From Dacryopinax spathularia (taxonomy: Eukaryota; Basidiomycota; Dacrymycetes; Dacrymycetales; Dacrymycetaceae), in assembly GCA_037974965.1 (NCBI GenBank), contig JBBPFI010000004.1:186001-250000 (forward strand): 64,000 nt of DNA. The letters run 5' to 3'. How positions within the stretch are numbered: position 1 is the stretch's first letter; each line of letters begins with the position of its first letter. The position numbers were made by a program, and so were the translations under genes. Below, in pieces: positions 13,395 through 25,002 of this stretch. The notes under the pieces are model-generated. The model made no database searches. It saw nothing but the letters and a program-made list of their open reading frames with translations, and was not told the DNA's origin.

Positions 13395-15448
13395 ATGCCG
13401 CCTCCGGCTCCGGCGCACTCGCCGCCCTTCTCCGCATACCCCATCGCGCCCTCCGTCCCTGTCTATCCTCAGGCGACAGACCCAATCCCGGGTTTGGAAG
13501 ATATCGTCATTCTCGAAGAACAGCTCAGGCAGAGAAAGGAGATCGCACATTCTAATTATGAGAAGACGATTCGGGATCTGACGACGCTCCAGCGGATAAT
13601 GGAGAAGGTAGAGCGGAATAGAGAGAAGAAGACGGGAGAGACGAAGTTGGAGGAGAAGGAGGTTAGGTTGGGGAGCGCTAAGCCGCCTGTATCAGGCCTT
13701 GCGCGTACGTGCTCTCCGGATATGTAGGAGTGAACCGCATCTGATGATGGTGCACTAGCTCCGGAACGAGATACTCTGTCGAAGGACCCGTCGTCTACAC
13801 CGCGATCCAGCGTCCCGCCGCGGAAAGTGTACGTACCTTCTTTCTGGGCATGTATTGTGGGCCCTAGCTAATTTCAAAATGTAGTGTACCGAAAGCATCT
13901 AACAAGAACAAGCGGAAACGCGTCGATAGCGACGATGACGATTCCTATGCTCGTATGTCCCTGCTCATGTGCCTCTGAGATATGCGAACTAACGCGATGC
14001 CAGCCGATCGCCGCGGCTCCCCACCCTCCCCACCACCCTCCTTCCCCAAGCACAAGCATCCTCCACATACCTCCTCTAGCTCGGCACTATCCAAGAAGAT
14101 ACCGCGCGAGCCAGTAGTAAACATGAACGACGACGCGTACTGGCGCTTACCCGAGCGTCCCTCGCTCGTCCCTCCACACCCACCACCGCCTGACCCTCCA
14201 GTTCCCGGGCCCTTACATCAACAAGATGTCGACCTTGACCTATCCGACGCGAAACCACCAGCATCGCAGATCACAGCGGACACATTTTGGAAGAGCGTCG
14301 AGCCGTGGATACGCGATCTGGGGGAAGAAGACGTAGCCGCTATGAGCTATATCGACGACGATCCCGAACCGTTCGTCGTCCCTCCGCTCGGAAAACCCTA
14401 CCACGAACGCTGGGCAGAAGAAGACGCGGCTATCTACACCTCCAATGGCCAACAGCGGGGAGAAGGGAAGACGTCGACCGCCTTTCCCCCTACGCAGGGG
14501 TTCGACCCTACAGAGCTGAGCGAGCAAGACTGGCAAACTGAAGAGAAGTCTCTCGGACCAGTAGCAGAACGGCTCGTCTCTGCTCTTCAGCCGAAACGGG
14601 ATCCGTTGCCGCCGACGAACGGTGCAGCAAAGGACGAGAAAGACGAGAAGAGGGAACTGATCGAGGCGATTGCCGAGGAGCTCCAGGTGGAGGACGCGCT
14701 TTCTGCAGGTCCGCTGGGTGATCTGAGGGTCAGTGCGGAGGAGCTTGATGTGAGGATCAAGCGGCAGCTGAAGGAGCTGGGATTGTGGTCTGAGCCAGAG
14801 GTACATTTTCCTCATCGCCCTCAAAACACGAATCTGGCTAATGTGTGTGCACAGCCCGACTTCTCTGCTCCGGAAGACGACTCCCTCCTTGCCGAACTCC
14901 GGACCTGCCAACGACTGCTGAAAGACCAAATGGCACTCAACGCCGCTCGCAAGTACCGACTCCTAAAGCGGTGCGAAGACCGCCTGGCGTACCAAGATTA
15001 CGTGCACCAGCTCGAGCGAATGGACGAGCAGATCCTGTCCGAGTACCAGAAGCTAACCAAGAAAGCCGCTCAAGAGGCGAAGAAACACGCGCGGCAAGCG
15101 AGCACCGCTAGCAGTTCCGGTGCAGGGCTGAACAAAGCCCACCCAAATGGAAGGGACAAGGACCGAGCTAAATCGTCCTCGTTCTCTCATTCTCCGTCTG
15201 TGGACCCGAGGAGTAGCTCCATGGCTCCGGAGCCGAAGAAACCTGCTGTTCCTGCTGAGCTGCTGCATGCGGTGAGGATCCGACAGAGGCTGGTCGATGA
15301 GCTCGGGAAGATCTTTGAGCAGGGGGAGAAAGAATGTCCCGGCCGGTTCTGGGGCTTGCCGGAGGTGAGCTTGTATAAGGGTATTACGGTTGATGAGGGG
15401 AGGAACGTCTTGAGGCGGGTGAATGTGGGTCATCCGGCGCTGCTTTGA
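13395..15448 (+). CDS. NGG1: SAGA/ADA histone acetyltransferase complex subunit Ada3 (Ngg1-like)
   Basis: Nuclear scaffold linking Gcn5-Ada2 in the SAGA coactivator complex. Five exons (13395-13704, 13759-13828, 13885-13952, 14004-14800, 14855-15448) give about 612 residues. The N terminus contains a predicted coiled coil (IVILEEQLRQRKEIAHSNYE region), then a basic NLS-like KNKRKRVDSDDDD. A conserved block reads ADTFWKSVEPWIRDLGEED followed by DDPEPFVVPPLGKPYHERW, diagnostic for the Ada3/Ngg1 family. The C-terminal part (LLAELRTCQRLLKDQMALN to YQKLTKKAAQEAKKHA) is a long helical/coiled-coil region. The final helix HAVRIRQRLVDELGKIFEQ resembles the conserved Ada3 C-terminal segment. Introns are all near 50 nt. 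Confidence 0.85.
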
Positions 15449-15831: not shown

Positions 15832-17734
15832 ATGCCTCTCCTCCCACCGTCAGCAGACCACACGCCTCTCCCCTCCGTTCCTCCGTCCCCGAACACACTT
15901 GCAACCCGTCTATCGAGCATGGACCTCCCACCTCCCTCAAGCGTGACAGCGCTCGACCCTACATCCAGCGCGCACGCGCCCAGCTCGGGGAAAGAGGAGA
16001 CGCCCGCCCAGTTGGCGGAGAAGATTGCCCAGCTTAATTTACCTGAGCCGGAGGAGATCAGGAACCAGGCGAGGGTCAAGCTGCAGAGACGGAATACGGA
16101 GGATGTTAATAGGGAGATTGCGAATATGCCGTTGCCGGATCCGGAATGGGCGAGCAAGCAGCAGGCGGACGGCAAGGAGGGGTGAGTCGTGCTTTCCTCT
16201 ACTGCTTGCACCTGGGCTGAAGAAGTGACAGAGCACCAAAAGTCGAAGTCACAGTACCGGGTGACGTCCCACCTTCCCAACCAACTCCGCAGCCCAAGAC
16301 GGTCGAAGTGCCCGGAGAAACAGAGCAGGTCGTCACGCCCTGGGACGTGCACGGAGGTGTTACGGCGGACGGGAAGCAGCAGGCGATCAACTATGACAAG
16401 CTGATTGATCAGTTTGGCACTCGCCGAGTGGACAAGGCTCTGCTGGATCGGTTTGAGAAGCTTACGGGTCGGAAACCGCATTTGCTGCTTCGAAGGGGGA
16501 CGTTCTTCTCCCATCGGTGCGCATCCATATGTCTGTACAAGAAGGACGAGAATTTAACTCTATAACAGTGACCTGAACGGCATCCTCGACCGCTACGAGA
16601 AGGGAAAGCCCTTCTTCCTCTACACCGGCCGCGGCCCAAGCAGCGACAGCATGCACCTGGGGCACATGATTCCCTTCGTCTTCACCAAATGGCTTCAAGA
16701 CGTATTCGACTGCCCGCTTGTGGTCCAGCTGACGGACGACGAGAAGTTCCTGTTTAAGAACGAGCTCAAGATCGAGCAGGTCGAGGGGTTCTCGAGGACG
16801 AATGCGAGGGATATCATAGCTTGCGGGTTTAATCTGGAGAAGACGTTTATCTTCAGCAATTTGGCGTTTGTTGGGTGCGTGTGACTCCATGCTGTCTGGT
16901 AGCATACAGCTGACGAGCCTCGCAGCGGTGCTTTCTACAAGAACGTCGTCCGCATCGCTCGCTACATTACGCTGAACCAGGCCCGTGCCGCCTTCGGCTT
17001 TAGCGACATGTGCGTCCCTCACTCCCGTACCTCAGTATACAACGCGTTGACTGACGTCCCTTCACAGGGACAACATCGGCAAGATCCACTTCTGTTCGAT
17101 CCAAGCCGCTCCTTCCTTCTCCAACTCCTTCCCCCAGATTTTCGGGACGAAATCCGACATCCCCTGCCTGATCCCGTGCGCGATCGACCAAGACCCGTAC
17201 TTCCGTCTGACGCGGGACACGGCCGCGCGGCTGAAATACCCCAAGCCGGCGCTGTTGCACTCCAAGTTCTTCCCCGCGCTCCAGGGGCCGCAGACGAAGA
17301 TGTCGGCTAGCGACCCGAATAGCAGCGTCTATATGAACGATACGCCGAACCAGATCAAGAATAAGATTAGGAAGCATGCGTTTAGCGGCGGGAAGGAGAC
17401 GGTTGAGGAGCACCGCGAGCTGGGGGGGAACCCGGATGTCGATGTTGCTTATCAGTACCTTGGGTTCTTTATGGATGATGATGTTGAGTATGCGCGGATT
17501 GCCGAGGTACGCACAGTTGAAGACAGGTTGTTATTGAAAGGCTCACACGTCCTGTAGGAATATCGGGCGGGACGATTGCTCACGTCAGAACTGAAGGATA
17601 TGTGCATCGAGCTGCTGCAGAAGTTTGTCAAGGACTTCCAGGAGCGGAGAAGCAAGGTTACGGATGCTCAGATTGATGCGTTCATGGATGCCACGCGCAA
17701 GATTGATCCTACGCCTGGGAAGGCTGCAGCATAG
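15832..17734 (+). CDS. WRS1: Cytosolic tryptophanyl-tRNA synthetase with novel N-terminal module
   Basis: Class I aminoacyl-tRNA synthetase charging tRNA-Trp. Six exons (15832-16181, 16232-16516, 16569-16874, 16926-17009, 17068-17506, 17558-17734) give 546 residues. The catalytic part begins at [13 protein letters not shown]. It has the HIGH-type motif HLGH in [12 protein letters not shown] (about residue 240) and the KMSAS loop (about 418), plus the eukaryotic signatures [13 protein letters not shown] and [11 protein letters not shown]. In front lies an extension of about 150 residues that the yeast enzyme lacks. It contains two copies of an LAxRLxxxDLPPP-like motif (residues 21-37 and 58-75) and RRNTEDV (86-92). 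Exon 1 ends GKEGG/A in phase 2, and its donor GTGAGT overlaps an in-frame TGA (16183-16185). The extension is homologous to the separate gene at 23003-23497. Fusion is supported by clean splicing and frame. Confidence 0.93.
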
Positions 17735-17857
17735 AGTCATGGTTCTCACTTGTATCTCATTCTCGTATCCGGCAGACTATAGCATACATAGCAAAGCGGG
17801 TCTCGGGCAGTCATTCATGCGGTCATCAGTGCTTAGCAGACGATCTTCAGCGTCCAT

Positions 17858-20800
17858 CTATTTGAACAGAGTCGCAGGCCATTTCCTTTCCAGGCGGTTA
17901 CTCTCGTGTGTCTTCAGAGTCTCCTTCAATGCTGCTGTCAACGCAGCGTTCTTCTTGCGGAGCCCGGCATGGGCCTGGTCGAGACCCTCGATGTTCTTCA
18001 GGTAATCCGTCTCGACCAACAAAACCTTCTCAAGTTGACCTCGCCTGCCATCATGTCAGTCTCGCATCTTCTCGTTCGGATCAGACACCTACTTTTGCGT
18101 GAACATCACGGTCTGATCAGCCTTCGCGTGCGCGACAATCTTTTCGCAGGCGAGTTGAGCATCGTTCTTAACGTATGCGACCTTGGTGACGATAGCCGAG
18201 TGTACAATCTGCTTAAGATCAGCGCCGTCAACCTCTAGATATTCCAATATAGCCCTACTTGTGCGAAGGCTCCCAGGATCTGGTTAGGACAGTGAGTATC
18301 CTACATTACTGCTGACTCGCTTGACTTACACGGCTGATCTCAGCAAGGGGTGATTTGTCGTCTGCAGTAGGAGCGATATCCTCTTCATCGTCAGTCGTCA
18401 CGAGAGCACTCTCTTCCGTCACGTTCCGGCGACGAGAAGTGAGCAGAGGACTTCGAATGCTGTCAACTTGCTTCTGGCGTATACGTTCTGTGGCTAGTGA
18501 AGAAGTTAGCATCATAAGGGCCGAAGGCGAATGACGTACCATATTTGTTCCTCACGGCATTCTTACCAGCCGTAGACAGGGCTTCTGAGCTCATGTCGAC
18601 TTTAGAAGAGAGCCCACCTGGCGCATGTGGAGGGCGCGCGAAGGCTTGACCTGGTAGCGCTGACCCGGAGCTTGCCTGCTTCACAAGAGGTGCTTTCACA
18701 GGTTTGGGCGCGACCTGCCTCTGCCGTCCAGCTCTTGCGGACCTTGTGGTAGACATTTCAATGTCGAACGATGGAAGGTCGAAAAGAGGCTGGAGTTCCT
18801 TCCTGGAGCTCTGTGCACCGAGGCCGATAGTATTCGCGCTAAGCTCAGCGGGCTTGTTCTTGAGGAGACTGGAGAACGCGCCCTTCTGGTCCGTGAGCGC
18901 CTGAACTGACGTAAGGGAGGGTCGGCAAGACCAAGGGTCATGACAACACACCGTGCCTGTGTCGCTGGGGGTGACCCTGTTTTTCATGGCGCTTCGCAAG
19001 TTTGAAGGAGCCTGTGCTGGGGGCTCATCCGCATCGGAATCCGACGAAACCTGTTCAGGGTCGGTATACGCTGGCAGGGAATTGAGCATCAAAGCTTACA
19101 TATGAACTGAGGCTGGCTTTTTTGATGGTCGAGCCTGCGGATAAGCCTTGCTTGTGACTAGCCTTGAGTGGAGACAATTGCGCAGTAACGGGCTCCGCCT
19201 CGGGCGTACTCTCCGGCAAAGAAATTTTACCTCCAATGCGGGCCGGTGCAGGATCGATAGAAGGTCCGTCTTTGGCCTTCGCGATGCGTTTGCTTTCATG
19301 TTCTCCCGCGTTGAAGTCCTTCGATTCCCATGGGGCTTTCTGTTTCCTCCCCGAACGCGTCCCCCCGCGTTTATTGTGAGGGTCAGCCGTGGTCGCGGGC
19401 TAGCAGCCTAGTTAGTTACGTCAAATCTTACATTGGTAACCGAACTGTGATACCTGGGAGGGCGGCGTGGTCTTGTGAATCTCTCGTACGAGCGGTGGAG
19501 ATACCACTTGGACTTCAGAACCGGAACGTGGGAAGTCAATGAGGTCGGCAGTGTTGCCCAAAGTACGTCCAGCCGTAGGTGTCTGCTCGTTGTCCTCAGC
19601 TTGTCGGGATTTCCGAGACGAAGCGGCAGCAAGGATCTTGCCAGGACCTCGGCTGGTACGGCCATTGATGATTTCTGAGTACTGCAGGTTCTGCACGGTC
19701 GACATATTCTGATCAATCTCAATGCTGACGGACGGTCTCGATCCCTCCCAGTGAGCAGTGACTGAAGAGGTGGGCAGGGTACGAGTGTTATCCATTGCGA
19801 GTATAGTTTTGGCCTTCCGCTCCGTCGTCGTACTGTAGCTCGTCACTTTAGCTTTCTTAGGTGGAGAAGGAGTTTCCGGCATATCAACTTCGATATCTCG
19901 GGCGGTCTCTGAGTCATCCAGTTTGCGCTTCGCTCCGACCAACGTATTTGATGTAGGTAAGTGTTCAGCGTCTTCATCCGCGGACCGAGTCGGGTCACCT
20001 GCTCCAGCTCGTTCCGCAACGCGCCTACTATTGCGCTTGTCCATCACGCTGACGATCCAGCTGTCATTTGAAGAGCTTACGGCCATGTCTTCATCGGGCG
20101 ACGTAATTGCTTTCACAGGTGAGAGACGAATCGATTGGGTGTTTGCGGAGATGGGAATATGAGCAGGTTCCTGTTCCGTAGACAAAGGAACCTTCGCGGC
20201 TAGCTGCTGAGAAGATGTTGACTGCTGCTCTGCGATGCGAGATTTCGCCTGCACAGCTGCTTTCCTGGGCTGTCGAGCTCGTAGAACGGTTCCCTGATCG
20301 TCATCGGGAGTAGTCCCGACGGGAGTGTCCTGCAGAGATGATTCGGCGATAACTGACTTCTTGCCTTTGGTATTGCGAGAGCCAGACTGTTTCGTTGTTT
20401 CATTGGCTTTACGCCCTACAGACTTGCGACGCGGTTTCGGAGCCGCAGCGCCCCGTGCTTTTCTCGACGCAGTCTCCAGGAGGGGCCGTTCTGATATGGC
20501 TTCGTCGTCGGATAACTCGCTTGCAGCACGGTCCTCCATATTCTCCAGCTGATCGTCGACATCTCGGACGGCGGCTTTGCCTTTCCCTTTTGCCTTGCTG
20601 TAAGTAATTTTGGACTTCGAGCTTTTCTGCTGCGACTTCTTAGGAGCAGGCGTCTCGTCTTGCTCTTCCTCAACCCACTGATCGTCTTTGGGGATCGGGT
20701 CGCTTGCCGCCGCAGCCTCTGCAAGAAGGGCATTCGCATTCGAGTTGACTATGGACGCATGGCTGGTGGATGTCGGTCCAGCCTCGGTCACTTCGTTCGC

Positions 20801-22611
20801 GCCCGCTGCTTGCTTGGGAACATATACTGCCTCTCCTGCCACGGACATATTGCGGGTTTGGAGGAACCTCTTCTTCAGCTGTCGGCACTGCTGAGACATT
20901 GGATTTGCAGAAACGTATGCACGGGCTCACCTCCCGTCGGCCCTCTATAGCGTTCTTAAAACGAGGAGCGACTTCCGCCGCGATGTCAAAAGTTATGATT
21001 TTGAGTGTATCAGGGACGCCATCGAGATCGAACAGGACTCTATCGGTCGAAGTTGGAGGTGCCGTGGTCTTGAACTCCACGCGGTGGACTCCTGGGTAGG
21101 GTCAGCAACATTTCGGGCAACAAGCCGACTTCCGACCTTCTTTACTCTCCAGGATCTTGATGTAATGTATCGTTGTAAACCTGATCTCTGCGGGACAAAG
21201 TTCATCCTTTAAACGAATAAGCGATCTGAACCCGCCTCAGCAACCAGGGCTGCGGCTTACGTTATCCTTGATGTCAATCAAGAACGCATCCGAATCAACG
21301 TATATGGGCTGTTCGACTTCGAGCGTCTTCATCCACGCCCTGATACCTTCGACCCTGATCGGTTGCGGACTAGACGTCTTTTAGAGAAGAAAAAATGTCG
21401 CTCGAGCTAGAGTTCATTACCGATTGATGTCGCCCTCAGCCATGATCTCTATCAGCTTCCTGGCCGACTATATTCACATATATCTTAGCACACGCAGTGA
21501 GAAAGGACGGGAGACATACCGACGCCCAGTCAGTTAGGTCGACTTTCAACATTGCTTTGATAAGCCGGGTGCATTGGTCATCGCCTAATACTCTGCGCAG
21601 CTTCCCGGAACCAAGGCATCTCTTGAGCAAGCCTGGTTCGAGCTTCGGATTCTTGACGGTAGGCCTGATCCTTACGGCCATTTCGAGAAGAGGCTCCAAC
21701 AGAGCATATGCTGGAAGGGTGAAGTTGGCCTCGGCCACAGAAGGAAGAGAGCATCGACGCACTATTGGTATCAGCTATTACTTCACCGATCCTCGCCCTG
21801 AGAGCACATAAGCACAATCAGTAGGGTGTTGAACCGAACAACTTACCCTCCAAATATGTCGTCCCTCAGCAACAGCGCGGCACAGGTCACATTGCGCGCA
21901 GTATCGCATAGTAGTCCAGTGACCTACGGCATAGATCAGATATCAAGAGAGCCAGAAAGCATGGCGACTCTCGCCTCTTTGCGGAGCGCCACAGACACCA
22001 TCGTGCACTTGTCATCAATGATGACTTTTGTAAGAGCTGGATACAGAAGCTTCGCGATCTCTCCGTCCGCTGATCAGTGCAGGCGTTAGCGGGAACATGA
22101 AGGGGACTGAGTGATCGAATTACCTAGCTTTTCTGGATGCTTGTCATAAAAATCCTGGGTTGAGATAAATATATGCGCATACATCTGCCGCTGGCCACTC
22201 ACCTGAAGTCCTGCAACGATGCCCTTCTCAAAGAAATGCTCCCATAGCTCCTTTTGCTCGCGAACGGCCCCACTACCCTCAGCGTTGCCCAGACATGGCC
22301 GCAGGCGAGTATCCCACACTTCGATGGCGAGCTCTGCAGCAACCGCAAAGGCCGGTTTACCGAACTTGTCGTAGAGCTTGGGCAGATGGACGGCAACAAG
22401 GGACTGCAGACGGTCCACAGTCGTCTTGGATGTGTCCTGCTGTAGAGGGATCAAATGAGAACGACCAAGAAAGCTGCATATATGCACACTTACGAAGGCC
22501 TCGGTCATCGCAGCTTGCAGCGTATCGGCGAACTTCGCCGTCTGCTGTTTCTCCTTCGCCACGCCAGTCTTGCCGAGCGCCACGATCGCGTTTTTGAGAC
22601 GAGTCAAAACC
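17858..22611 (-). CDS. Large multidomain protein, candidate meiotic chromosome-axis protein (SYCP2/Red1-like)
   Basis: About 1,350 residues joined across some 17 exons from ATG 22611 to TAG 17858. The N-terminal ~290 residues are helical and look like an ARM-type repeat domain (RLKNAIVALGKTGVAKEK, LLCDTARNVTCAALLLRDD, AYALLEPLLEMAVRI). A compact beta-rich domain follows (IRFTTIHYIKIL, VHRVEFKTTAPPTSTDRVLF, DTLKIITFDIA), which could be a PH/Spt16-like fold. A long disordered Lys/Ser/Pro-rich middle of about 750 residues comes next. The C-terminal ~130 residues are helical/coiled coil (ILEYLEVDGADLKQIV to LRKKNAALTAALKETLKTH). ARM plus PH-like plus linker plus terminal coiled coil is the architecture described for SYCP2/Red1 axis cores. 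That match is architectural only. Some junctions use unusual sites (a GTCGGA donor near 21150), so exon limits are provisional, and two genes cannot be fully excluded. Confidence 0.4.
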
Positions 22612-23002
22612 ATCTCACTGTTGGTTGGGAATGGATGATGTAGGTAAGGAGAAAGGAGGAGGCCGAACGGCCGGTCCACGCGAGAGGAGTACTTTAGCCC
22701 GTGATCCGAACTTTTTGGAAGTCCGGTGTCACGTGCGTTCTAAGAAATGGCAGGAGCGGGAGATGCCGTAAGTGGCTCTACCGTGGGCAGGGCGCATCAG
22801 CCTGAGAGGCAGAGATCTGGCAGAAACTGTTGTTCTATTAGGCAAGTCGTTCTATGGGGGACGTACAAAGCAGAAAAGACCGGAAGTTGGTAAACGGGGA
22901 TCAACGTCGATTGTTCATGGGGGTATCGCAGACTATAGGAAGGAGGCTCCGTACTGGCCGAGTCATGAAGCTGGAAGAAGCGCTAAATCGGAATATGCAT
23001 CT
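22612..23002. other. Intergenic region between two minus-strand genes
   Basis: 391 bp holding the 3' end of the TrpRS-module gene and the promoter of the axis-like gene. A plus-strand open frame at 22772-23122 has no recognisable content and lies antisense to an exon. Confidence 0.4.
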
Positions 23003-23497
23003 TCAAGCATCTACACCATTCCTCGTCGGGGTGATTGGCGAAGGCTCCGCTTCTGGAAGAGGCAGAAGCTTGTCGTCAACTTGGAGGGTGGTGTGCGGAA
23101 TCTCCGGCCTACGGTATATTAGCCCATTATTAGAACAGGAAGCTAGCCTGACTCACTCTTTCTTTTCCCCGCGCCTTTTGCCCATGCTCGGGTGCCTTCC
23201 CAGCTTGATGCCCTCGGGTATGCCGAAATCCATCTTAGCGATCTCTTCCGTAACATCGTCCGTATTCCTCCTTGCCCGACCGGTCTTCTCTTCCTTTCTT
23301 ATTGCCTCAGGCGGAGGTAGATTGAGCTGGCTGAGGCGTTCAGCGATATTGTCGCTTTGAGTCCCGGGGCTGGTGACGGTGCCGTTCAGAGCAGATGGCG
23401 GTGGAAGGTCAAACTCGGCCAGACGATTCGCGAGGGTGTTTGGGGACGGAGGAACCGATTGGTCAGGTGAAGTCGCAGTGGGGACGCTGAGAGACAT
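23003..23497 (-). CDS. Stand-alone paralog of the TrpRS N-terminal module
   Basis: Small protein of unknown function, 148 residues, from two exons (23497-23157 and 23108-23003) around a 48-nt intron with a CTAAT-type branch sequence. It aligns along its length with the extension of the tryptophanyl-tRNA synthetase at 15832. Shared blocks are [13 protein letters not shown], DLPPPSA, QLNLPxPExIR, RRNT(D/E)DV and EIAxM. The repeated motif occurs at residues 21-36 and 50-65. The intron is in the same phase (2) and place as TrpRS intron 1. After it, the tail (EPEIPHTTLQVDDKLLPLPE) is Pro/acid-rich and ends before any synthetase domain. If the intron is retained, translation stops at the TGA inside GTGAGT, giving 114 residues. 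No transmembrane or catalytic motif is seen. Confidence 0.65.
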
Positions 23498-23839: not shown

Positions 23840-24684
23840 TCATGGTTCAATCTTTTGGCCCACAGCCTCAGCCTTCTGCTCCACCGTCCAGTCGAAGTTA
23901 CGTGGACCTTTCACGTGTTTCCACTCTTCAAGTGCTTCCAATGCTGCCTTTCCCCAGTCAAACTCACCAGGATCTACGTCCTCTGGACAGTCGACGAAAA
24001 CAGCTAGCGCAATGTTGCCAGGAGGAATGAAGCCGGAGTCCACGGCATCCCTGATCATTTGGCGGAGTGGCGAGTAGAAGTTGAAGACGTTGAGGAGAAC
24101 GACGGCTGTCCGGGTGTTAGTGAAAGCCCGAGATTCATAGAATAGATAAATGCGCACGCTTTTGGTGAATTCCCAGCTGCGTCCATGTGATCATTTCCAT
24201 CACCTCCTCTAACGTCCCGTAACCACCGGGGAGGGCGACGAAGCCGGCTTCTGCTCGACTAGCCATGATTTGCTTACGCTCGTGCATGGTCTTGGAAACC
24301 ACAACTTCCATTCCGCTGCCGTCCCAGCCAGGAATGGTACCGTAGCCTTCTCCGCCGGTAGCCACCTAGAAACACCGTTAACAGCAACACTGCTTTCGGT
24401 AGGATATGAGCCCGTACCATAGCGTAGGGAATGACGCCTACCACGCTCCCTCCTGCTTCGACGCACGCGTGCGCTGTGGCACCCATCAACCCCTTCATTC
24501 CTCCTCCATAGACGAGCTTTCGGCCAGACCCAGCGATCGCTCTGCCCAGAGCTGGGGAGTTAAGGCTACAATCAATACAGTAGTAATGAATGGGGTCGCA
24601 CGACGTACAGGAGGCAGCCGCAAGATACGCAGGACGCGTACCCAGTGATGAGGCGCAGAATACGCAGACCGCTGGCTTGGACAT
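23840..24684 (-). CDS. LOG family protein (cytokinin riboside 5'-monophosphate phosphoribohydrolase-like)
   Basis: Soluble Rossmann-type enzyme of the LOG family, which cleaves nucleoside 5'-monophosphates to free base and ribose 5-phosphate. In plants and some fungi this activates cytokinins. Four exons were joined; introns begin after AYLAAAS, PYAM and GIHQK. Family motifs are present: [15 protein letters not shown] at the N terminus, [16 protein letters not shown] for phosphate binding, and the diagnostic [13 protein letters not shown] preceded by HERKQIM. The C terminus ([11 protein letters not shown]) is an ordinary helical tail. Length is normal for fungal LOG proteins. The natural substrate in this fungus cannot be read from sequence. 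Confidence 0.85.
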
Positions 24685-25002
24685 AGCTAGCTCGTTGAGG
24701 CTTGCGGGAGATGCTGGTACGGACGGGCACCAGGACTGGACTCTATTTAAGCTGATGCGACATCAGTGACACGCATCCGAGGCGCGACGCGCCAGGGGAT
24801 AGGTGACTCGACGACAGTCACGTAGCAGTGAGGTCGGGGGACTGCAAACAGACTACATCAACGTGTCGATCGCCGGCCTGCATACGGCGATGATATTCGT
24901 TGATTAGATCAGATGCCATGGTCCCATAGTACAACGATACGAGTATACATATAGGGACAAGGGATGCGCAGAAATGCTCGTCCAAAGCCCAGGAGCAAGC
25001 CG
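24685..25002. other. Intergenic region, LOG upstream / PLC-like 3' end
   Basis: 318 bp. It includes the LOG promoter, with an AT-rich TATA-like ATTTAA near 24740. No gene. Confidence 0.35.

What the first reader, a model, noticed from the sequence alone, without database searches (positions are those of the whole stretch)
15832..23497. Tryptophanyl-tRNA synthetase carries an N-terminal module that also exists as a separate gene 5 kb away
TrpRS (15832-17734) has about 150 extra residues before EQVVTPWDV, absent from the yeast enzyme. The small gene at 23003-23497 encodes the same module: [13 protein letters not shown], DLPPPS, QLNLPxPE, RRNT(E/D)DV and EIAxM occur in the same order and spacing. 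Both have an intron at the same place in the same phase (2), and in both the second exon begins a Pro-rich segment. The stand-alone copy then stops. Shared intron phase shows homologous gene structure rather than convergence. Either a free regulatory protein was captured by a synthetase or the synthetase head was copied off as a free protein. Free and fused forms might bind the same partner or each other.
Basis: partly seen in the sequence, partly recalled or inferred. Interest (0 to 1): 0.75.

Follow-up and report, generated by a model that had tools for sequence, protein, structure and literature searches.

The report
Detached copy of a synthetase's arm
In what is likely a jelly fungus, the gene for the enzyme that loads tryptophan onto its tRNA carries an extra front arm, and a second small gene 5 kb away encodes the same arm on its own; the small gene is likely a copied-off piece of the enzyme gene and would bind whatever partner the arm binds.

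Summary
Observation confirmed. TrpRS (15832-17734) has 147 residues before its core; the small minus-strand gene (23497-23003) encodes the same module (alignment score 212; maximum 110 in 2000 block shuffles), and both have a phase-2 intron at its end. Two queries found no third copy in this 29 Mb genome. Both forms recur in Dacrymycetes.

A profile search found two fragments from unnamed organisms in which the module runs into the TrpRS core without interruption, so fusion likely predates Dacrymycetes; free copies were found only in Dacrymycetes. I infer copying-off from the synthetase, not capture; the tree is unrooted.

New: the module is a tandem repeat of about 31 residues (predicted short helix, LPxPE turn, second helix), clear in four unnamed relatives (0 of 1000 shuffles each), degenerate here. 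No convincing Pfam, PDB or Foldseek relative. A separate mitochondrial-type TrpRS exists in this genome, so the head is not needed for mitochondrial supply. Structure models are weak (free, mean pLDDT 59) or failed (TrpRS, 44).

Best reading: TrpRS carries a multivalent docking arm and the free protein is a selected trans copy likely sharing its partner. Partner and function are untested.

The parts
15832..16181 (+). TrpRS exon 1: N-terminal module, residues 1-116 and two bases of the next codon
15898..15945 (+). fused module, repeat unit 1 ([16 protein letters not shown], residues 23-38)
   Evidence: pattern, alignment
16012..16059 (+). fused module, repeat unit 2 ([16 protein letters not shown], residues 61-76)
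16105..16152 (+). fused module, repeat unit 3 ([16 protein letters not shown], residues 92-107)
16182..16231 (+). TrpRS intron 1, 50 bp, phase 2, GTGAGTC...ACAG
16232..16516 (+). TrpRS exon 2: Pro-rich linker, then core from EQVVTPWDV
16569..17734 (+). rest of TrpRS core: exons 16569-16874, 16926-17009, 17068-17506, 17558-17734
   Evidence: PF00579; PDB TrpRS matches
23157..23497 (-). free gene exon 1: the same module, residues 1-113 and two bases of the next codon
23387..23434 (-). free module, repeat unit 1 (LANRLAEFDLPPPSAL, residues 22-37)
23300..23347 (-). free module, repeat unit 2 (IAERLSQLNLPPPEAI, residues 51-66)
23207..23254 (-). free module, repeat unit 3 (VTEEIAKMDFGIPEGI, residues 82-97)
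23171..23203 (-). free-form-specific basic segment LGRHPSMGKRR (residues 99-109), present in 3 of 3 free proteins and 0 of 3 Dacrymycete fused ones
   Evidence: alignment
23109..23156 (-). free gene intron, 48 bp, phase 2, GTGAGTC...GTAG
23003..23108 (-). free gene exon 2 and stop (tail PEIPHTTLQVDDKLLPLPEAEPSP...)
   Evidence: conserved in P0001 and P0002

Best explanation
The small gene is likely a detached, selectively kept copy of the first exon and first intron of the tryptophanyl-tRNA synthetase gene, and its protein would act in trans as a soluble copy of the synthetase's docking arm. Shown: the two genes encode homologous modules with the same intron phase; both forms are conserved in other Dacrymycetes; in two unnamed fragments the module precedes the TrpRS core in one open frame. 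Shown by sequence: the module is a degenerate tandem repeat of about 31 residues whose core is L-x-x-[LMF]-x-L-x-x-P-[ES]. Inferred: TrpRS had the arm first; a partial 5' duplication in a Dacrymycete ancestor made the free gene, which then gained a basic segment (LGRHPSMGKRR) and its own tail. Predicted, not tested: each unit is a short helix, an LPxPE turn and a second helix, a multivalent peptide ligand that tethers cytosolic TrpRS to a partner; the free protein would compete for or bridge that partner, perhaps switched by a basophilic-kinase-type site (R-x-R-R-N-T) that all three free proteins keep. Within the confidence given, origin by copying is about 0.8 and the shared-partner mechanism about 0.4.
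For: Homology far above shuffles, E 3e-15 in own genome, same intron phase. Free orthologues in Calocera viscosa and Dacryopinax primogenitus, fused ones in C. cornea and D. primogenitus. Profile search: 9 of 6639 candidates at E<=10; P0005 and P0006 (5.1e-9, 1.6e-8) hold module and TrpRS core in one frame, with the same intron after FFSHR as the window gene, judging by the read-through. Tree: unnamed rows against Dacrymycete rows 100/100, free clade 99/100. Constraint: free module 50 of 66 residues identical between window and Dacryopinax against 48 of 71 for the fused module and 362 of 399 for the core; between the paralogues 67 of 106 codons differ at position 3 against 40 and 38 at positions 1 and 2. 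31-residue period: 0 of 1000 shuffles in each of P0005-P0008. Unit 2 to unit 3 spacing is 31 in 10 of 13 sequences.
Against: The tree is unrooted and 3 of 13 module sequences (P0009-P0011) were left out; the root could lie on the long free branch (1.48 changes per column). The unnamed sequences have no organism, and P0005 and P0006 are 94% alike in the module, so they count as one. One search, with the window TrpRS head alone, found only 2 Dacrymycete proteins among 526 candidates, so wide occurrence rests on unnamed fragments. The 31-residue period is weak in the window itself: the free module peaks at 31 but 47 of 1000 shuffles do as well, and the fused one peaks at 38. Structure models are weak (free P0001: pLDDT 59.4, pTM 0.18) or failed (P0003: 43.7). 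No partner is known and no expression data were seen. The kinase-type site is degraded in fused Dacryopinax (TKGT).
Confidence: 0.6

Rival explanations
1. Capture: a free repeat protein came first and was fused to TrpRS in an early basidiomycete; only Dacrymycetes still keep the free form.
For: The tree is unrooted and allows it; the free form evolves a little more slowly than the fused one.
Against: No free form was found outside Dacrymycetes among 6639 profile candidates, although P0007-P0011 are single ORFs that could be read either as exon 1 of TrpRS or as free proteins. It needs more losses.
Confidence: 0.15
2. The free protein acts on TrpRS itself: its units bind the TrpRS surface that the fused arm also touches, in cis or in trans, and tune activity.
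For: Same module and conserved spacing; the genes lie close together here, and in Dacryopinax both lie on a contig of the same length, 2036205.
Against: No structural support: the TrpRS model failed. The linker between arm and core is long and poorly conserved (14 of 38 to 24 of 39 identical), which suits a flexible tether better than a docked part.
Confidence: 0.15
3. The head is an organelle-targeting extension as in dual-localised Cryptococcus TrpRS, and the free gene is a by-product.
For: Cryptococcus TrpRS is single-copy and dual-localised through two AUGs (PMC7049704, passages). The window gene has a second in-frame AUG at residue 30 with A at -3 and G at +4, where both database orthologues start.
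Against: This genome has a separate bacterial-type TrpRS on the same contig whose open frame starts with an Arg-rich stretch (no predictor was run). The head has D+E over K+R (16 to 11), unlike a presequence. The module lies downstream of the second AUG.
Confidence: 0.05
4. The free gene is a functionless relic or is kept by drift.
For: No known domain; no expression data.
Against: 114-117 of 147-148 residues identical among three species with intact frames; mostly third-position differences between paralogues.
Confidence: 0.05

Closest known systems
Free-standing copies of synthetase domains (AlaXp, ProXp-ala, YbaK; plant aaRS fragments; PMC7564348 and PMC4394549, passages)
   Same: A part of a synthetase also exists as a gene of its own and may act in trans.
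   Different: Those named are editing domains, scaffolds or catalytic fragments. This is a non-catalytic repeat arm with its own basic segment and tail. The plant fragments were reported as not conserved between Arabidopsis and rice; this one is conserved across three Dacrymycete species.
WHEP domains of animal TrpRS, HisRS and GluProRS (PMC4394549, passages)
   Same: Helical appended segment, in GluProRS repeated three times; TrpRS also carries one at its N-terminus.
   Different: About 50 residues per unit against about 31; no Pfam WHEP hit at E<=10 in 13 sequences.
Arc1p with the N-terminal arms of MetRS and GluRS in yeast (PMC4394549, passages)
   Same: Works like: N-terminal arms of synthetases dock onto a partner.
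   Different: GST-like folds there; here a low-confidence, mostly extended model with short helices.
fars-3 duplicates that became toxins in Caenorhabditis tropicalis (PMC12680543, abstract and passages)
   Same: Partial or changed duplicates of a synthetase gene evolve a new role.
   Different: No toxin or antidote feature was looked for or seen here; the free copy is conserved rather than recent.

Membership tests
cytosolic eukaryotic TrpRS | class I W/Y catalytic domain and close match to solved TrpRS | tested here: met
   PF00579 E 2.6e-21, above cut-off; 2ip1 E 2.1e-171
free-standing paralogue of a synthetase domain | homologous to a synthetase part, separate gene, lacks the catalytic core | tested here: met
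   conserved in two other species
free-standing paralogue of a synthetase domain | acts in trans on the synthetase, its tRNA or its partner | not testable with these tools
   needs binding assays
WHEP domain | match to the WHEP profile | tested here: not met
   not among the 5 Pfam families at E<=10 in 13 sequences
mitochondrial targeting extension of a dual-localised TrpRS | no separate mitochondrial TrpRS | tested here: not met
   bacterial-type TrpRS exons in the same genome: TIGR00233 E 9.7e-16 and 2.9e-23 for two exon ORFs, each below the whole-protein cut-off because partial
mitochondrial targeting extension of a dual-localised TrpRS | basic, amphipathic presequence | tested here: inconclusive
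   composition only: 11 K+R, 16 D+E in the 116-residue exon-1 product; no targeting predictor available
any described repeat or domain family | profile or fold match | tested here: not met
   Pfam best non-TrpRS E 0.024; PDB sequences best 6.6, 0.8 and 0.9; Foldseek best E 6.1, on a low-confidence model

The most novel reading that the evidence does not exclude
Basidiomycete TrpRS carries an undescribed docking arm built of 31-residue helix-LPxPE repeats, and Dacrymycetes have split off a free copy that works as a built-in competitor or bridge, setting how much TrpRS is docked and how much is free.
Probability: 0.3. Interest if true: 0.65.

Novelty: new variant of a known kind. Interest (0 to 1): 0.47.

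Why it matters
Synthetases often carry extra arms whose roles are unknown. Here one arm exists fused and free in the same genome, so its binding can be studied without disturbing charging of tRNA: delete the free gene, or add the free protein, and see what changes for TrpRS. The 31-residue repeat gives a profile for finding the arm in other fungi. If the free copy competes with the fused one, a piece of a housekeeping enzyme has become its regulator by simple partial duplication.

Tried and rejected
Chance or low-complexity resemblance: rejected by shuffles. Shared promoter: 600 bp upstream of each gene share nothing beyond an 11-base match, E 0.12. Shared intron sequence: weak (47 of 1000 shuffles as high). 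Mitochondrial targeting: set aside because a separate mitochondrial-type TrpRS exists. Known domains: none in Pfam, PDB sequences or Foldseek. Structure: the TrpRS model (P0003 with 7 rows) failed, mean pLDDT 43.7, and nothing was read from it; the free model (P0001 with 7 rows) has mean pLDDT 59.4 and is used only for where helices may lie. More genomic copies: scans of viral contigs and of prokaryote genome contigs confirmed no relative, as expected for a fungal gene. Literature: searches (TrpRS with basidiomycete, Dacrymycetes with synthetase, TrpRS with Dacryopinax, TrpRS with Basidiomycota) returned 0 papers; searches gave the papers cited, none of whose passages that I saw describes this module. 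A resemblance of the unit to actin-binding RPEL repeats (helix, turn, helix, in tandem) is recalled only; no RPEL match appeared in Pfam.

Full report
What is there. The plus strand at 15832-17734 holds a six-exon gene for a cytosolic-type tryptophanyl-tRNA synthetase of 546 residues. Its core matches solved TrpRS chains from query residue 138 on (2ip1, E 2.1e-171) and Pfam PF00579. Before the core lie 147 residues without a Pfam match. On the minus strand, 23497-23003 encodes a two-exon protein of 148 residues, also without a Pfam match. The window lies in a 29.2 Mb genome of 24 contigs. The closest relatives of both proteins are from Calocera and Dacryopinax, so the organism is likely a Dacrymycete.

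The two heads align from their first methionine ([27 protein letters not shown] and [26 protein letters not shown]) through three blocks, with a local score of 212 against at most 84 in 2000 plain shuffles and 110 in 2000 block shuffles. In the whole genome the free protein finds itself and the TrpRS head (E 3e-15) and no third place at E<=10. A search with the module of P0005 found the same two places and no other. Both first introns are phase 2 and begin GTGAGTC. The introns themselves are only weakly alike (47 of 1000 shuffles as high), and 600 bp upstream of each share nothing of note. Between the paralogues 40, 38 and 67 of 106 aligned codons differ at positions 1, 2 and 3, as coding sequence under constraint does.

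Both forms are kept. Free orthologues: P0001 (C. viscosa) and P0002 (D. primogenitus), the only two proteins at E<=0.01 among 69 candidates. Fused orthologues: P0003 (C. cornea) and P0004 (D. primogenitus), the only two at E<=1 among 526. In D. primogenitus both proteins list a longest contig of 2036205 bases, so they are probably linked there too. For the one pair of species with both forms (window and Dacryopinax), identity is 50 of 66 in the free module, 48 of 71 in the fused module, 17 of 41 in the fused linker and 362 of 399 in the core. The free protein is thus at least as constrained as the arm it resembles. All three free proteins share a basic segment LGRHPSMGKRR and a site R-A-R-R-N-T that the fused forms lack or have in weaker form; that this fits basophilic kinases is recalled, not tested.

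Direction. A profile of the six Dacrymycete modules (A3) found 9 proteins at E<=10 among 6639 candidates: the two known free ones and seven unnamed ones with E 5.1e-9, 1.6e-8, 3.6e-6, 5.7e-6, 6.9e-3, 2.0e-2 and 0.91. The first two, P0005 and P0006, run from the module through a linker into DQVVTPWDV...FFSHR (P0006 DQIVTPWDV) in one open frame. P0005 shares 46 of 64 core residues with the window and 35 of 64 with the PDB TrpRS stretch. P0006 continues after FFSHR with CVCK, as the window frame does with CASI, which fits an intron at the same place and phase. In a tree of 10 of the 13 modules (P0009-P0011 left out) the unnamed rows separate from the Dacrymycete rows with 100/100 and the free proteins form a clade with 99/100; the fused Dacrymycete rows are not a clade of their own in the best tree (one group in 3% of 200 bootstrap trees), the free clade joining two of them with support 81/81, which is too weak to lean on. 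The tree is unrooted. Fusion outside Dacrymycetes and free copies only within them make copying-off the simpler history, and the shared extension [10 protein letters not shown], absent from the unnamed rows, agrees with it. PMC4301749 (passages) lists a single TrpRS of 641 residues in Cryptococcus neoformans against 433 and 424 for the larger TrpRS of Aspergillus niger and Candida albicans, so a long form exists in another basidiomycete; I did not see its sequence.

What the module is. Each module holds two or three matches to a hand-made pattern (hydrophobic, three residues, hydrophobic, two residues, hydrophobic, x, L/F/M, two residues, P, E or S), 13 of 13 sequences, with at most 0.004 expected per shuffled sequence. 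The pattern was written after reading the sequences, so this count describes and does not test. The independent test is the self-offset score: in P0005, P0006, P0007 and P0008 the best offset between 15 and 49 is 31 residues, which 0 of 1000 shuffles reach in each (P0005 and P0006 are near copies). In the window the signal has decayed: the free module still peaks at 31 but 47 of 1000 shuffles do as well, and the fused one peaks at 38 (2 of 1000), because its first spacer is longer. Unit 2 to unit 3 is 31 residues in 10 of 13 sequences, 33 in P0010 and 35 in P0009 and P0011. The AlphaFold model of P0001 puts helices at 19-28, 34-38, 51-57 and 63-88, with mean pLDDT 59.4 and pTM 0.18: short helices joined by LPxPE turns, no stable fold as a whole. 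No related fold or family was found.

How it most likely works. A flexible, poorly conserved linker joins the arm to a conserved core, the arm repeats a short helix-LPxPE unit, and the arm is dispensable for mitochondrial supply because a bacterial-type TrpRS lies on the same contig. This is the anatomy of a multivalent docking arm. The free protein keeps the units, drops the enzyme and adds a basic segment and a tail. It would therefore reach the same partner without bringing TrpRS, as competitor or bridge. Every step in this paragraph beyond the anatomy is inference; no partner was identified. A direct action on TrpRS is the main rival and could not be tested because the TrpRS model failed.

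Comparison. Free-standing synthetase domains are well known (AlaXp, ProXp-ala, YbaK; PMC7564348 and PMC4394549, passages), and synthetase duplicates can take on new roles, as fars-3 duplicates did in a nematode (PMC12680543, abstract and passages). In Cryptococcus the TrpRS N-terminus serves dual localisation (PMC7049704, passages). The present case belongs to the first kind in its layout. The arm itself matched no family searched, and four searches that paired TrpRS or synthetases with this fungal group returned no paper. I therefore call it a new variant of a known kind.

Limits.

Noticed in passing
15919 (TrpRS residue 30): A second in-frame AUG with A at -3 and G at +4; both database orthologues (P0003, P0004) are annotated as starting there. 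Two isoforms by leaky scanning are possible, the short one lacking the first helix.
   Followed up: partly
G000:C4:116323-117359 (about 70 kb upstream of the window start on the same contig), L005: Bacterial-type TrpRS exons with an Arg-rich N-terminal open frame, likely the mitochondrial enzyme.
   Followed up: partly
about 17860-22620, minus strand: Between the two genes lie open frames of what looks like one or more large multi-exon genes; four of these frames had no Pfam hit at E<=0.01 (19424-20926, 22089-22739, 21439-21774, 18466-19095).
   Followed up: no
13979-15448, plus strand: Ada3-family histone acetyltransferase subunit upstream of TrpRS (PF10198 E 1.3e-22).
   Followed up: no
23840-24762, minus strand: Possible lysine decarboxylase/SLOG-type gene next to the free gene (PF03641 and PF18306).
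   Followed up: no
window TrpRS exon 2 end, 16516: The intron after FFSHR seems to be shared in place and phase with the unnamed fragment P0006, judging by its read-through residues.
   Followed up: partly
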